Origin: Bacillota bacterium
GTDB lineage: Bacteria > Bacillota > DTU030 > DUMP01
NCBI GenBank assembly: GCA_012735455.1
Contig: JAAYHG010000129.1
Span: forward strand, 1 to 8,702
DNA: 8,702 bases
Direction of reading: 5' to 3'
The notes under the pieces were generated by a model, which did no database searches, was not told the DNA's origin, and saw only the letters and a list, made by a program, of their open reading frames with translations. The position numbers were made by a program, and so were the translations under genes. Below are positions 1 to 4,773 of this stretch, one piece after another; positions within the stretch are counted from its first letter, which is position 1; every line of letters starts with the position of its first letter.

Positions 1-709
1 CGGGGTTAGAGACCACAATTCCTGCCGCACCGGCTTCATAGGCAAGGAGGGCCTCATCCGGCGTCATGATCCCCTTCACCAACACCGGTAGCTTAGTTTG
101 CCGGCAGATCTCTCTTAAAGCAGCGGGGCTCAAGGGGCCAACGTACTGTCCTGCCCGACGCATGTTGATGAGCCCAGCAGCATCCACGTCCACTCCCACA
201 GCCACTGCATTTGCCTCTTCTGCCCTCCGTATCCGATCCTTAATTTCCTCAAGCGAACGAGGTTTAATAATGGGTATCCCTCTACCGCCCGCAGCCCTTA
301 TCGCCCGGAGGCCAGCCTCGTACACCACCGGCTGCGGTCCATCTCCTGTCAGCGCCAAAGTGCCCGCGTCCAAGGCGCCCTTCACCTGGGCCCAAACCAG
401 GTCCTGCTCTTCTATCCGGCCGGCAAAGTTTATCGCCGCCCCTGCCACAGCAGCACCTAACACCGGGAGCGAGAGAGACTGGCCGAAGAGCTCCACCCCA
501 AGGTCAGGTTCGCTGACCCCATGTAGTGTCCGTAGGTTAAGCCTAAGTACCCGCAGGGCCTCATGATTATTTCGCGCTCCGGTTCCTGTCCCCACTCCTC
601 CTATTCCTGGCACCTCACCGGCACAGACGCGACCGTCACAGTCTCGGCAGAGACGGCAGATGCCCTGCAGTTTCTCTGCCGCAGCCTTCTTAACCTCTTC
701 CCATTTCAT
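1..709 (-). CDS. FMN-dependent alpha-hydroxy-acid oxidizing protein (C-terminus beyond window)
   Basis: Reading the minus strand from ATG at 709 gives 236 codons with no stop before the window edge; the family is about 340 residues, so roughly the last third is missing. The family uses FMN to oxidise 2-hydroxy acids such as lactate or glycolate in a TIM barrel. Visible matches to the short clostridial branch are GVDVDAAGL (about 174-182), PVLVKGIMTPDEA (about 208-220, with the conserved FMN-contacting Lys) and AGAAGIVVSN at the edge. The N-terminus has a four-Cys cluster (C18, C21, C24, C29) before GEVPGIGGVGTG. The residue after VVSN reads Pro, where the family has the catalytic His of SNHGGR. 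ATG 709 was chosen because the Cys cluster then sits near residue 18 as I recall for relatives; GTG 730 is an alternative, and neither has a strong ribosome site. The gene lies 55 nt downstream of comEA. The substrate is unknown. Confidence 0.85.
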   Translation of the reverse strand, partial: MKWEEVKKAAAEKLQGICRLCRDCDGRVCAGEVPGIGGVGTGTGARNNHEALRVLRLNLRTLHGVSEPDLGVELFGQSLSLPVLGAAVAGAAINFAGRIEEQDLVWAQVKGALDAGTLALTGDGPQPVVYEAGLRAIRAAGGRGIPIIKPRSLEEIKDRIRRAEEANAVAVGVDVDAAGLINMRRAGQYVGPLSPAALREICRQTKLPVLVKGIMTPDEALLAYEAGAAGIVVSNP

Positions 710-1563: not shown

Positions 1564-4047
1564 TTATTTTGCTACGATATTAAGTAGCTTCCCGGGAACG
1601 TTGATTACCTTAACTACCTTCTTGCCCTCAATCTGGCTCTGCACCTTTTCTAACTTCAGGGCCAACCGTTCTACCTCCTCAGGCGGGCTGCCAGCAGCTA
1701 CCACTAGACGGTCACGCAGACGGCCGTTTACCTGCACAACAATCGTTATTTCCTCCTGGGCCAGAGCCTTGTCGTCCCACTGTGGCCAGCTCTGACGATG
1801 AATGCTATCCGTGTGGCCGATTTGATACCAAAGCTCTTCCGTAATGTGCGGGGCAAAGGGAGCCAAGAGCAACAGAAGTGTCTCCAAGGCCTCCCGCACC
1901 ACGCCGCGGTGCTGCCGATCGTTTTCTAGGTAGCGCTGGATCTCGTTCACCATCTCCATGATGGCAGCAATGGCGGTATTGAAATTGAAGCGTTCCTCAA
2001 TATCCTCGCTCACCTTCTTTATAGTTGCGTGGACCTTACGCCTCAGGTCACGATCGGCACGTTCTAACAGAGAATACTCATTTGCGGGACTGGAAACGAC
2101 TGTTTTGTTCCCCATTACCAATCGCCAAACCCGGTTGAGGAAACGCCAGGCACCCTCAACACCTTGGTCACTCCAATCCAAGTCCTTATCCGGTGGCGCA
2201 GCGAAGAGGATAAAGAGGCGCGCGGTATCGGCCCCGTACTTGGCGAAAATCTCTTCGGGATTCACCACATTACCTTTGGACTTGGACATTTTGGCACCGT
2301 CTTTAATTACCATGCCCTGGGTGAGCAGATTAGTAAATGGCTCCACGTTACTCACCAGGCCCGCGTCATAGAGCACCTTGGTAAAGAAGCGCGAGTAAAG
2401 TAGGTGCAGCACAGCATGTTCAATACCGCCGATATACTGGTCTACTGGCAGCCAGCTGTCTACTGCCTCCTTACTGAACGGGGCCTGGTCGTTTTTCGGA
2501 TCAGTGTAGCGGTAGTAGTACCAAGAGGAACAGATAAAGGTGTCCATGGTATCGGTCTCGCGGCGCGCAGGACCACCACACTGGGGACAGGTAGTATTGA
2601 CAAATTCCGGAATCTGTGCCAACGGCGAAACCACACCGGGGTCAAACTTAATGTTTTCCGGCAACATCACCGGCAGGTCCTCTTCCGGCACTGGAACGGT
2701 ACCGCAACTGTCGCAGTAGTCAATGGGAATAGGAGCACCCCAGTAGCGCTGCCGTGAGACCAACCAATCACGCAGACGGTATGTCACCGCCCGTTTGCCC
2801 CAACCATTCGCTTCCAGATAATCTGCGATCTTATCTTTGGCCAGTTCGCTCTCCAAACCGTTGAACGGACCCGAGTTAACCAAAACGCCGGCCGCAGGTA
2901 CAGCCTCGGTCATAAGATCTGGATCCAACACTTCGCCCACTGGCTGACCACCCACGCGGACAGGAAGGTCATACTTGCGGGCAAACTCAAAGTCGCGCTG
3001 GTCGTGGGCGGGAACTCCCTTCACTGCACCGGTGCCGTAGCCCATGAGAACGTAGTTGGCCACCCAAATTGGCACCTTTTCACCGTTGACAGGATTGATA
3101 CAGTGCACCCCAAGATCCAGACCTTCCTTCTCCTGATCGGCTTCCTCCCCTGGTCGTGCCATTTCATGCTGGCGACGGCACTTCTCCACAAATTCTCGGA
3201 CAGCGGCTTCTCGATCGCTGCCTTTAACTAACTCTAAAACCAAGGGATGCTCGGCCGCCAGTACCATAAAAGTTACACCGTAGAGAGTGTCCTGGCGGGT
3301 GGTAAAAACGGTGATGCCCCTCTCCTGTCCGGGTAGGCTAAAAGTTACCTCGGCACCAACACTCTTGCCGATCCAGTGCTCCTGCATGATTCGTACCCGT
3401 TCAGGCCAGCCACCTAGAAGTGAGAGGTCCTCCAAGAGGCGGTCAGCATAGTCTGTGATCTTGAAAAACCGCTGTTCTAGCTCCTTCTTCACCACTCCAC
3501 TGCCACAGCGCCAGCAACCACCTTCAACAACCAGTTCGTTCGCCAGGACAGTCTGGCAAGACGGGCACCAGTTTACCGGAGCCTTACGTTTGTACGCTAG
3601 CCCGCGCTTGTACATTAGAAGGAACATCCATTCTGTCCAGCGGTAGTAGTCTGGGAGGCAGGTGGCCACCTCTCGCTCCCAGTCGTAACTGGTACCAAGC
3701 TGCTTTTGCTGGGCACGCATCTTGGCAATGTTTTGTTTCGTCCATTCAGCTGGGTGGGTGCCGTGCTTAATGGCGGCATTTTCTGCAGGCATACCGAAAG
3801 CATCCCAGCCCATGGGGTGCAACACGTTAAAGCCGCGCATGGTCTTAAAGCGCGCTACCACATCACCAATAGAGTAATTGCGAATGTGTCCCATGTGCAG
3901 CGCCCCGGAGGGATAGGGGAACATCTCCAAGACATAGTAATTGGGGCGATCGCTCTTGTTTTCCACACGGTGGGACCTCCGTTCTTCCCACACCTGTTGC
4001 CACTTGGTCTCAATTTCCTTGAAGTTGTAGTGCTCCTCTCTAGCCAA
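1564..4047 (-). CDS. leuS: Leucyl-tRNA synthetase
   Basis: Class I leucine-tRNA ligase: it activates leucine with ATP and charges tRNA-Leu in the cytoplasm. Numbered from the TTG start (827 residues, normal for the bacterial form), it has the HIGH motif HMGH at about 51-54 and the KMSKS motif at about 586-590. Zn-type pairs are at 161/164 and 178/181 (CPSC, CWRC), with further CDSC and CPQC pairs near 445-490. The CP1 editing domain shows TTRQDTLYG (about 249-257) and [13 protein letters not shown] (about 344-356, including the conserved editing Asp), followed by the C-terminal anticodon-binding helices and small end domain. I chose TTG 4047 because AAGGAG lies 8 nt upstream and [17 protein letters not shown] matches family N-termini. 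ATG 4086 would add 13 residues encoded just past the leader terminator and has no good ribosome site. Expression is governed by the leucine T-box leader upstream and ends at the strong terminator downstream. Confidence 0.97.
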
Positions 4048-4055
4048 GGGACCCT

Positions 4056-4061
4056 CTCCTT
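4056..4061 (-). promoter_or_regulatory. Ribosome binding site deciding the leuS TTG start
   Basis: AAGGAG on the minus strand sits 8 nt before TTG 4047. The alternative ATG at 4086 is preceded only by GAGAGG inside the leader terminator stem. This site therefore favours the 827-residue LeuS. Confidence 0.7.
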
Positions 4062-4091
4062 CCAAGCGACACTGTTCTATCAACATATGAA

Positions 4092-4128
4092 TAAAAAACC
4101 TCTCGCGCCTGGAAAACCCAGGGACGAG
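4092..4128 (-). terminator. Leader terminator of the leuS T-box
   Basis: On the minus strand CTCGTCCCTGG pairs with CCAGGCGCGAG (one C-C mismatch) around a short TTTT-containing loop. It runs through AGG into TTTTTT (4098-4093). The 5' strand contains the CGTCCCT needed for the antiterminator, so the two structures exclude each other, as expected for a transcriptional T-box. Confidence 0.9.
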
Positions 4129-4174
4129 CGGTTATGTACCATCCCGCGGTACCACCCTGCTTGGTAAAGATAAT

Positions 4175-4249
4175 TGGTGGAGCTGACGGGGATTGAACCC
4201 GTGACCTCTTCCATGCCAAGGAAGCGCGCTCCCACTGCGCCACAGCCCC
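4175..4249 (-). tRNA. tRNA-Ala, anticodon GGC, CCA encoded
   Basis: A 75-nt cloverleaf reads on the minus strand. The acceptor GGGGCTG pairs with CAGCTCC. The D stem is GCGC/GCGC with loop AGTGGGA, and the anticodon stem is CTTCC/GGAAG with loop TTGGCAT (anticodon GGC). The variable loop is AGGTC, and the T stem ACGGG/CCCGT has loop TTCAATC. A73 and CCA follow. The G3:U70 wobble, the main alanine identity element, is present. Every stem pairs, so it looks functional and would read GCC/GCU alanine codons. It has no promoter of its own that I can see; the consensus promoter inside rsfS would transcribe it together with the leuS leader. It lies between Stem I and the antiterminator of that leader, which is very unusual. 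Confidence 0.97.
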
Positions 4250-4351
4250 ACATCTTCACCCGCTTTGCACTCTTACTCCGAGGCGAGTTCGGCAAATCGC
4301 GCTACCGGTTTACACCTATCTCCGGCTCTCTTGGAACGCTGCTGTTGCTTA

Positions 4352-4765
4352 CTACTCCCCATCATCATTGGCGTTTGCAGTTGTCACATTGGTCATTATA
4401 CTTAAGTTCATGTCGCTTGTCAAGGTCTCAGGTCGAAAAACCGGCGCATCGCCCCAGAGCCGCTCCAACGCATAGAATTCCCGCGCCTCTTCGCGCATAA
4501 CGTGCACAACCACCCCGCCGTAATCGAGGAGTATCCAGGTTGCGTCAGCGTGCCCCTCGCGGTGCAGCATCGTTATGCCTTGTTTCGCCAGCACTTGCTC
4601 TACATTATCGGCAATCGCCATGAGCTGAGTCTTATTGGCAGCACTAGCAATGACAAAGTAATCGGCAATCAGAGATATGCCACCAATATTCAAGATCACA
4701 ACGTCCTTGGCCTTTTTCTCTTCTGCAGCCTGGGCAGCCAAAGCGGCTATCTCCAGTACTTCCAA
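4352..4765 (-). CDS. rsfS: Ribosome silencing factor RsfS (Iojap family)
   Basis: RsfS/Iojap proteins bind ribosomal protein uL14 and block joining of the 30S and 50S subunits in slow growth. The conserved core is clear: AKDVVILNIGGISLIADYFVIASA, the HREGHADATWILLDYGGVVVHVM segment and EAREFYALERLWGDAP. The family normally ends about there; this protein carries some 28 further residues of low-complexity tail (ending TTANANDDGE). That tail is encoded by DNA holding the leuS promoter and the 5' strand of the T-box Stem I, and the TAG stop is inside the AGUA motif. I prefer TTG 4765 because AGGAGG sits 8 nt before it; the GTG at 4771 is only 2 nt from that site. The TAG of the upstream LCP gene overlaps the ribosome site, which suggests translational coupling in the yqeK-LCP-rsfS operon. 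Confidence 0.93.
   Translation of the reverse strand: MEVLEIAALAAQAAEEKKAKDVVILNIGGISLIADYFVIASAANKTQLMAIADNVEQVLAKQGITMLHREGHADATWILLDYGGVVVHVMREEAREFYALERLWGDAPVFRPETLTSDMNLSIMTNVTTANANDDGE
4395..4423 (-). promoter_or_regulatory. Consensus sigma-A promoter for the tRNA-Ala/leuS transcript, inside rsfS
   Basis: On the minus strand TTGACA (4423-4418) is followed by exactly 17 nt and TATAAT (4400-4395), a perfect match to the housekeeping consensus. It lies within codons 117-126 of rsfS counted from the GTG frame start. Transcription should begin near 4388, giving a leader of about 340 nt to the leuS start. Confidence 0.9.
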
Positions 4766-4773
4766 ACCCACGA

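What the first reader, a model, noticed from the sequence alone, without database searches (positions are those of the whole stretch)
4092..4388. A tRNA-Ala gene embedded inside the leucine T-box riboswitch of leuS
Seen directly: Stem I elements with a CUC specifier lie upstream (about 4378-4260), an intact tRNA-Ala(GGC) occupies 4249-4175, and the T-box antiterminator/terminator lies at 4158-4092. All are on the same strand and about 300 nt long in total. Known T-boxes place Stem III, and often Stem II, between these domains; here a complete tRNA gene takes that place, with only 16 nt before the T-box sequence. I know of no described T-box with a functional tRNA inside its leader. Inference: the tRNA may serve as a structural linker in place of Stem II/III. 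The leader would then be both a riboswitch and a tRNA precursor, sensing one tRNA (Leu) while carrying another (Ala).
Basis: partly seen in the sequence, partly recalled or inferred. Interest (0 to 1): 0.93.

Follow-up and report, generated by a model that had tools for sequence, protein, structure and literature searches.

The report
A tRNA gene inside a riboswitch
In bacteria from several phyla, the predicted RNA switch in front of the leucyl-tRNA synthetase gene carries a complete alanine tRNA gene at the tip of one of its stems, so a single transcript would act both as a leucine-shortage sensor and as the source of an alanine tRNA for which most of the genomes checked show no second gene.

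Summary
A T-box leader with a leucine (CUC) specifier lies upstream of leuS, and an intact tRNA-Ala(GGC) lies inside it at 4249-4175. It sits at the tip of Stem III: a 9-bp helix (4260-4252 with 4171-4163) flanks it, framed by the RRRxG...AA motif of the T-box discriminator. That helix covaries in the 62 of 80 representative relatives that have both anchors (84% paired, 66% with shuffled arms, 0 of 2000). Several plain leuS T-boxes have a small hairpin in that slot. The arrangement is widespread: 78 of 398 genomes of the phylum match it (26 of 140 family codes). In a truncated GTDB scan, 99 of 119 loci have tRNA-Ala(GGC) just before a T-box-like sequence, some titled Chloroflexota, Atribacterota or Armatimonadota. 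In 68 of 78 genomes it is the only match to a tRNA-Ala(GGC) pattern. A 12/12 consensus promoter precedes Stem I. Best reading: one RNA, two jobs. The terminated leader would be a tRNA-Ala precursor; read-through would also make LeuRS. Transcription, processing and switching are untested. Searches of open-access papers found no description.

The parts
4395..4423 (-). predicted sigma-70 promoter TTGACA-17-TATAAT, upstream of Stem I; it lies inside the 3' end of the rsfS ORF
   Evidence: 12 of 12 consensus positions; of 113 unique relatives tested, 89 showed the AGAGA motif of Stem I, and 72 of these 89 have TTGACN-16..18-TANNNT upstream of it
4117..4374 (-). T-box leader (full-length match to RF00230), tRNA as an insert
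   Evidence: 70.6 bits, E 2.2e-15, model 1-219
4285..4287 (-). specifier CTC (Leu) in the Stem I specifier loop
   Evidence: sequence; a CTC in this context in 100 of 113 unique relatives, 56 of 2260 shuffles
4261..4265 (-). AAGCG = RRRxG purine motif 5' of Stem III
   Evidence: sequence; motif as described in PMC7583486 (passages)
4252..4260 (-). Stem III, 5' arm GGTGAAGAT
   Evidence: pairs with 4171-4163, predicted pairing probabilities 0.96-1.0; covariation
4175..4249 (-). tRNA-Ala(GGC) with encoded CCA and G3-U70, apical domain of Stem III
   Evidence: GGG at 1-3 and TCCACCA at the 3' end in 117 of 117 unique relatives
4163..4171 (-). Stem III, 3' arm ATCTTTACC
4161..4162 (-). AA motif 3' of Stem III
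   Evidence: sequence; motif in PMC7583486
4143..4158 (-). T-box sequence AGGGTGGTACCGCGGG, with the UGGU that would pair with a tRNA ACCA end
4093..4133 (-). terminator hairpin and T run; its 5' strand overlaps the antiterminator's 3' strand (about 4128-4120)
   Evidence: fold; the simple terminator scan did not list it
1564..4047 (-). leuS, leucyl-tRNA synthetase; start predicted at TTG 4047 after AAGGAGAGG (4061-4053). The first ATG of the open frame is 4086, just after the terminator
   Evidence: PF13603 editing domain and others; open frame 4086-1564

Best explanation
The leuS leader is a predicted T-box with a leucine specifier whose Stem III carries a complete tRNA-Ala(GGC) gene at its tip, and this one RNA would serve both as the leucine switch for leuS and as the precursor of that tRNA. 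Shown by sequence and comparison: Stem I with CTC, the covarying Stem III helix on both sides of the tRNA, the RRRxG/AA frame, the T-box sequence, a possible competing terminator, a tRNA that keeps its anticodon and G3-U70 in the 117 relatives compared, and a consensus promoter upstream of Stem I. Inferred: transcription starts near 4388 and always passes the tRNA. If tRNA-Leu is charged, the T-box terminator stops RNA polymerase; the short RNA would not be waste but a pre-tRNA with the T-box terminator as its 3' end, matured by RNase P and a 3' nuclease. If uncharged tRNA-Leu accumulates, it would bridge Stem I and the T-box bulge, the antiterminator would form, and leuS would be transcribed as well. 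Supply of tRNA-Ala(GGC) would thus follow the promoter, and LeuRS would follow the leucine switch. Stem III would do double duty: it would position the purine string that senses the tRNA 3' end, and it would clamp the 5' leader of the pre-tRNA to its trailer, which should delay RNase P until the switch has decided.
For: T-box and tRNA are both matched by models at the same place, the T-box also in 18 of 20 and 11 of 11 sampled relatives. Stem III pairing around the tRNA: own arms -9.7 kcal/mol against -6.2 for permuted arms in 80 representatives, 0 of 5000 permutations as low; 84% paired in the anchored register against 66% for shuffled arms (0 of 2000) and 32-51% for shifted registers, with GC, AT, TA, CG and GU types at single positions, in the 62 of 80 representatives that have both anchors. 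Fold: Stem III and the acceptor stem form one nearly continuous helix. Several plain leuS T-boxes have a short hairpin in that slot. Promoter 12/12 upstream of Stem I and none between Stem I and tRNA in the window. The tRNA is probably in use: 68 of 78 genomes have no second match to the tRNA-Ala(GGC) pattern, and the only other tRNA-Ala detected in the window's genome has anticodon CGC. When the switch decays the tRNA stays: L223 keeps the tRNA without a T-box hit; L072 and L209 lack a recognisable Stem I. Leader pairing with the RCCA end slows E. coli RNase P in vitro (PMC9433436, abstract and passages).
Against: No transcript, processing or regulation data. Only in 17 of 80 representatives does the own Stem III pairing beat 95% of cross pairings, and it is weak in some (L134 -0.3, L113 -1.5, L154 -1.4 kcal/mol). 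18 of 80 lack an anchor of the RRRxG...AA frame, or an arm long enough, under my fixed rule. The window's leader scores below Rfam's gathering score, and its global fold is not significantly more stable than shuffles (z -1.17). RNase P cleavage would cut Stem I from the T-box, so processing and switching could conflict. G(-2)U(-1) next to the tRNA is also present in 8 of the 17 other tRNA genes read in the window's genome, so it is not evidence of a special clamp. Five of 89 relatives have a promoter-like match between Stem I and tRNA. In 6 of 69 tRNA-Ala(GGC) loci no leuS was found within 1.8 kb or to the end of the DNA held.
Confidence: 0.75

Rival explanations
1. Two independent units that only share a place: a tRNA-Ala gene with its own expression sits between the parts of a leader, and selection keeps each for itself.
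For: Five of 89 relatives have a promoter-like match between Stem I and tRNA; in G055 (L223) a promoter-like sequence lies directly before the tRNA and no T-box is found.
Against: Flanks on either side of the tRNA pair and covary as Stem III; the tRNA lies at the same spot of the T-box in loci titled as several phyla; no promoter between Stem I and tRNA in the window.
Confidence: 0.1
2. The tRNA shape is kept only as a structural linker or scaffold of the T-box and is not used in translation (the strong form of the first reader's inference).
For: Stem III and the acceptor stem stack into one helix in the predicted fold.
Against: Anticodon GGC, G3-U70 and the encoded CCA are unchanged while stems vary; mostly no second match in the genome; the tRNA remains where no T-box is found (L223).
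Confidence: 0.04
3. The tethered tRNA's own ACCA end pairs with the UGGU of the T-box bulge in cis and makes the switch respond to alanine charging or to tRNA maturation.
For: UGGU matches ACCA, and the end lies 16 nt upstream.
Against: In the predicted fold A73 and C74 are paired with U-1 and G-2 and the 3' end is not free before processing; the CTC specifier context is kept in 100 of 113 relatives.
Confidence: 0.05
4. Gain of the tRNA in Stem III happened many times by separate insertion, so the layout reflects an insertion hot spot rather than a selected unit.
For: On the LeuS tree (94 embedded rows, 26 plain) the embedded label needs 14 changes, at least 10 forced by well supported branches.
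Against: All 63 leuS-linked loci that could be typed carry the same isoacceptor at the same spot; changes may be losses from one old gain; the tree was a quick FastTree with a midpoint root, its 'plain' rows include leuS without any T-box, and one genome (G088) is in it twice.
Confidence: 0.12

Closest known systems
T-box riboswitch (Rfam RF00230), transcriptional type, aminoacyl-tRNA synthetase leaders
   Same: Stem I with specifier, RRRxG-Stem III-AA discriminator frame, T-box sequence with UGGN, antiterminator and terminator
   Different: The loop of Stem III is a complete, functional-looking tRNA gene of another amino acid
Minimal T-boxes without Stem II/IIA/B such as glyQS (recalled)
   Same: In the representatives of the window's own class no F-box-like motif was found between Stem I and Stem III
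   Different: Leu specifier and embedded tRNA; most relatives with the tRNA do have an F-box-like motif (68 of 80)
tRNA-mRNA co-transcripts such as the E. coli thrU...tufB operon (recalled)
   Same: tRNA and mRNA would share one primary transcript
   Different: There the tRNAs lie in a plain operon; here the tRNA is a structural part of a tRNA-sensing switch, before its terminator
Pre-tRNAs with leader/3'-end pairing that slows RNase P (PMC9433436, abstract and passages)
   Same: 5' leader predicted to pair with the RCCA end and trailer
   Different: Here the pairing is a riboswitch stem of about 9 bp

Membership tests
T-box riboswitch | Stem I with specifier codon matching the regulated gene | tested here: met
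   CTC before leuS; RF00230 aligns from position 1; CTC in this context in 100 of 113 relatives
T-box riboswitch | T-box sequence with UGGN bulge in an antiterminator that competes with a terminator | tested here: met
   AGGGTGGTACCGCGGG at 4158-4143; predicted terminator shares CTCGTCCCT
T-box riboswitch | Discriminator frame 5'-RRRxG-Stem III-AA-3' | tested here: met
   AAGCG...AA in the window; 62 of 80 representatives have both anchors under a fixed rule
T-box riboswitch | Match to the Rfam covariance model | tested here: inconclusive
   Full length, E 2.2e-15, but 70.6 bits is under the gathering score of 93; sampled loci reach 93 in 14 of 20 and 2 of 11
T-box riboswitch | Binding of uncharged tRNA-Leu and antitermination | not testable with these tools
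   needs in vitro transcription or reporters
tRNA-Ala | Cloverleaf accepted by tRNA models | tested here: met
   ARAGORN; RF00005 67.3 bits
tRNA-Ala | Alanine identity pair G3-U70 and GGC anticodon | tested here: met
   117 of 117 unique relatives have GGG...TCCACCA, so T at position 70 (second tally; its first tally, headed pos70, in fact read position 71). That set was picked as Ala(GGC), but in the unpicked set all 63 leuS-linked loci that could be typed were Ala(GGC)
tRNA-Ala | Processed and charged in the cell | not testable with these tools
   indirect only: sole pattern match in 68 of 78 genomes

The most novel reading that the evidence does not exclude
The two RNAs form one regulatory machine: Stem III clamps the embedded pre-tRNA so that RNase P cannot cut until the T-box has read the charge of tRNA-Leu. 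Maturation of tRNA-Ala then cuts the sensor from the switch and fixes the outcome. One transcript so links alanine tRNA supply to leucyl-tRNA synthetase supply, and it has done so since before several phyla split or exchanged it.
Probability: 0.3. Interest if true: 0.95.

Novelty: new variant of a known kind. Interest (0 to 1): 0.86.

Why it matters
T-boxes are the textbook tRNA-sensing riboswitches, and their Stem III was long taken for part of a variable linker (PMC7583486, passages). Here a whole tRNA gene is nested inside that stem in many families and, by record titles, several phyla. If the reading is right, a riboswitch can double as the precursor of another structured RNA. It makes directly testable how RNA processing and co-transcriptional sensing share one molecule. 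It also shows that a default covariance scan can miss such a T-box, as it did here.

Tried and rejected
Tried: reading the tRNA as a replacement for Stem II/III (rejected: Stem III is present around it, and an F-box-like motif lies upstream in 68 of 80 representatives). Reading it as a chance neighbour or a recent insertion (rejected). Other tRNAs in other T-boxes: the pattern was open to any tRNA with CCA. Among the first 80 loci, the 7 typed as other tRNAs (Val, Pro, Ser, Gln, Arg) have no leuS match downstream and look like chance matches. In all, 20 of 119 loci were not typed as tRNA-Ala(GGC); of these L108 has leuS downstream but a truncated upstream. A special G(-2)U(-1) clamp (not supported as special: 8 of 17 other tRNAs read in the genome have it). 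Global fold stability was uninformative (z -1.17). The LeuS tree could not tell one old gain with losses from several gains. One search used a wrong spacing (0 of 398 matches) and was discarded; one search asked the question again on the 78 genomes with the element. In one search, G338's element lies at a contig end that looks chimeric and has a broken tRNA (L075), so its count is unsure. The first tally that was meant to read position 70 read position 71; the second tally was used.

Full report
WHAT IS THERE. On the minus strand, between rsfS and leuS, lies one element. A consensus promoter TTGACA-17-TATAAT is at 4423-4395, 12 of 12 positions, and the scan found no other promoter-like site on this strand in 3900-4600. 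Stem I follows, with specifier CTC at 4287-4285. Then come AAGCG at 4265-4261, the arm GGTGAAGAT at 4260-4252, a tRNA-Ala(GGC) with encoded CCA at 4249-4175, the arm ATCTTTACC at 4171-4163, AA at 4162-4161, the T-box sequence at 4158-4143 and a terminator hairpin at 4133-4093. leuS follows (PF13603 and other class I synthetase domains). RF00230 aligns over its whole length (70.6 bits, E 2.2e-15) but misses its gathering score of 93, which is why the default scan showed the tRNA only.

THE tRNA IS THE TIP OF STEM III. A review of T-boxes describes the motif 5'-RRRxG-Stem III-AA-3' as part of the aminoacylation-sensing discriminator (PMC7583486, passages read). In the window that frame is AAGCG-[GGTGAAGAT...ATCTTTACC]-AA, with the tRNA between the two arms. 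In the predicted fold the nine Stem III pairs have probabilities of 0.96-1.0, and the helix runs on into the acceptor stem past a five-base bulge. In several plain leuS T-boxes of the same phylum the slot holds a small hairpin, for example 19 nt in L216 and 14 nt in L225 (sequences); not every plain leader examined could be read this way.

COVARIATION. I collected 155 loci with a typed tRNA-Ala(GGC) before a T-box sequence; 117 have distinct flanks, and 80 representatives of those share under 75% flank identity. The own arms pair better than permuted ones: -9.7 against -6.2 kcal/mol on average, 0 of 5000 permutations as low. For 17 of 80 the own pairing beats all but 5% of the cross pairings, and for 65 of 80 it beats the median. 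In the 62 of 80 with both anchors, 84% of the first six pairs are standard, against 66% for shuffled arms (0 of 2000) and 32-51% for shifted registers. Position 3 alone shows TA, CG, TG, GC, AT and GT. The anchor rule prefers a 5' arm that begins with G, which affects position 1 and is kept in the shuffles. Pairing is weak in a few loci (L134, L113, L154). Related sequences inflate such counts, but the shifted registers keep relatedness and fall far lower.

HOW WIDESPREAD. The 7 other genomes of the family that were searched match the element at 81-84%. An open pattern (any tRNA T-arm and CCA, then a T-box sequence) matched 78 of 398 genomes of the phylum, 51 of 266 genera and 26 of 140 family codes; the reversed pattern matched 1 of 398. 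It undercounts: of 30 genomes picked for lacking it, G020 (no encoded CCA) and G088 (longer linker) also carry the element. 99 of 119 were typed as tRNA-Ala(GGC). Of the first 80, 69 were Ala(GGC), and 63 of these have a leuS match within 1.8 kb. Record titles name Syntrophomonas, Thermosyntropha, Desulfallas, Desulfofundulus, Ktedonobacter, Dictyobacter, Sphaerobacter, and MAGs called Atribacterota, Armatimonadota, Caldisericota, Coprothermobacterota and Actinomycetota. Single MAGs titled Proteobacteria or Desulfovibrio may be misbinned. The T-box model matches 18 of 20 and 11 of 11 sampled loci at E 0.001 or better; 14 and 2 of them reach the gathering score.

THE tRNA LOOKS FUNCTIONAL. G1-G2-G3 and U70-C71-C72-A73-CCA are unchanged in 117 of 117, so the alanine identity pair G3-U70 is kept (second tally; identity role recalled). 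T33 and the GGC anticodon are unchanged (that set was selected as Ala(GGC), but the unselected leuS-linked set is also all Ala(GGC) where it could be typed, 63 of 64). In 68 of 78 genomes there is only one match to a tRNA-Ala(GGC) pattern. In 10 there are two: five second matches resemble tRNA-Ala (G008, G009, G011, G065, G202), four (G192, G204, G256, G350) do not resemble the embedded type and were not examined further, and G338 has one tRNA-Ala-like match on another contig and one unlike match, while its element lies at a contig end with a broken tRNA. In the window's genome the other tRNA-Ala found has anticodon CGC (the assembly is 93% complete).

NATURAL EXPERIMENTS. G055 (L223) keeps the tRNA between rsfS and leuS, followed by a hairpin-like stretch with a T run, with no T-box hit. 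L072 and L209 keep the tRNA and T-box sequence but no recognisable Stem I. The tRNA thus seems to outlive the switch in these lines. In Desulfofundulus, Desulfotruncus, Desulfallas and kin (6 of the 69 loci) the same leader stands before an AMP-binding acyl ligase (PF00501, checked on L141) with no leuS in the DNA examined; in L119, L135 and L165 a class IV aminotransferase (PF01063, checked on L119) lies between T-box and leuS. The cassette therefore holds together when the gene behind it changes.

EVOLUTION. On a quick LeuS tree of 94 embedded, 26 plain and 1 tRNA-only rows, the embedded state needs 14 changes, at least 10 forced by well supported branches (shuffled mean 24.6). It occurs on both sides of the midpoint root. 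One old gain with many losses, several gains, or transfer with leuS remain open.

MECHANISM. Shown: anatomy, conservation, covariation. Inferred: one transcript from the promoter before Stem I; termination gives a short RNA that is a tRNA-Ala precursor; antitermination by uncharged tRNA-Leu adds leuS. The tRNA lies before the terminator, so it would be made in both states. Also inferred: Stem III holds leader and trailer of the pre-tRNA together and so should slow RNase P. In E. [quoted passage not shown] In our set 64 of 117 have GU there, but so do 8 of the 17 other tRNAs read in the window's genome, so only the longer pairing is distinctive: -15.2 kcal/mol against -1.4 to -11.2 for those 17 flanks.

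LITERATURE. Nine searches of open-access full texts and passages of PMC7583486, PMC7778990, PMC1262725 and PMC4919913 showed no T-box with a tRNA gene inside. Two recalled comparative papers were not held, so an earlier mention there cannot be excluded.

VERDICT. A real and widespread variant of the T-box by sequence and comparison: a riboswitch with a tRNA gene nested in Stem III. The dual use is the best reading and is untested.

Noticed in passing
window 4352-4771 and 4395-4423: The rsfS open frame runs through the leader's promoter and into Stem I; the RsfS domain covers residues 12-106 of 139 only, so its C-terminal tail overlaps the regulatory DNA.
   Followed up: no
L098, L105, L125, L141, L148, L158: The T-box-tRNA cassette stands before an AMP-binding acyl ligase instead of leuS in Desulfofundulus, Desulfotruncus, Desulfallas and kin (Pfam checked on L141); why a leucine switch would control it is open.
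   Followed up: partly
L119, L135, L165: A class IV (branched-chain-type) aminotransferase lies between the T-box and leuS in these Armatimonadota-like records (Pfam checked on L119).
   Followed up: partly
L223 (G055): tRNA-Ala(GGC) alone between rsfS and leuS with a promoter-like sequence before it, no T-box hit: likely a decayed switch.
   Followed up: partly
L113, L130, L134: Coprothermobacterota- and Caldisericota-titled copies have a very short Stem I (AGTAGTAGGC...GAACTCGTCC) yet keep the tRNA.
   Followed up: no
L079 1696-1994 (G123): Group II intron RNA domains lie directly downstream of the T-box-tRNA leader.
   Followed up: no
L075 (G338 contig C119): Contig end with inverted copies of the T-box and a broken tRNA, probably an assembly chimera.
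   Followed up: no
G000, nine other loci L003-L011: The window's genome has nine further RF00230 matches; none was examined for embedded genes.
   Followed up: no
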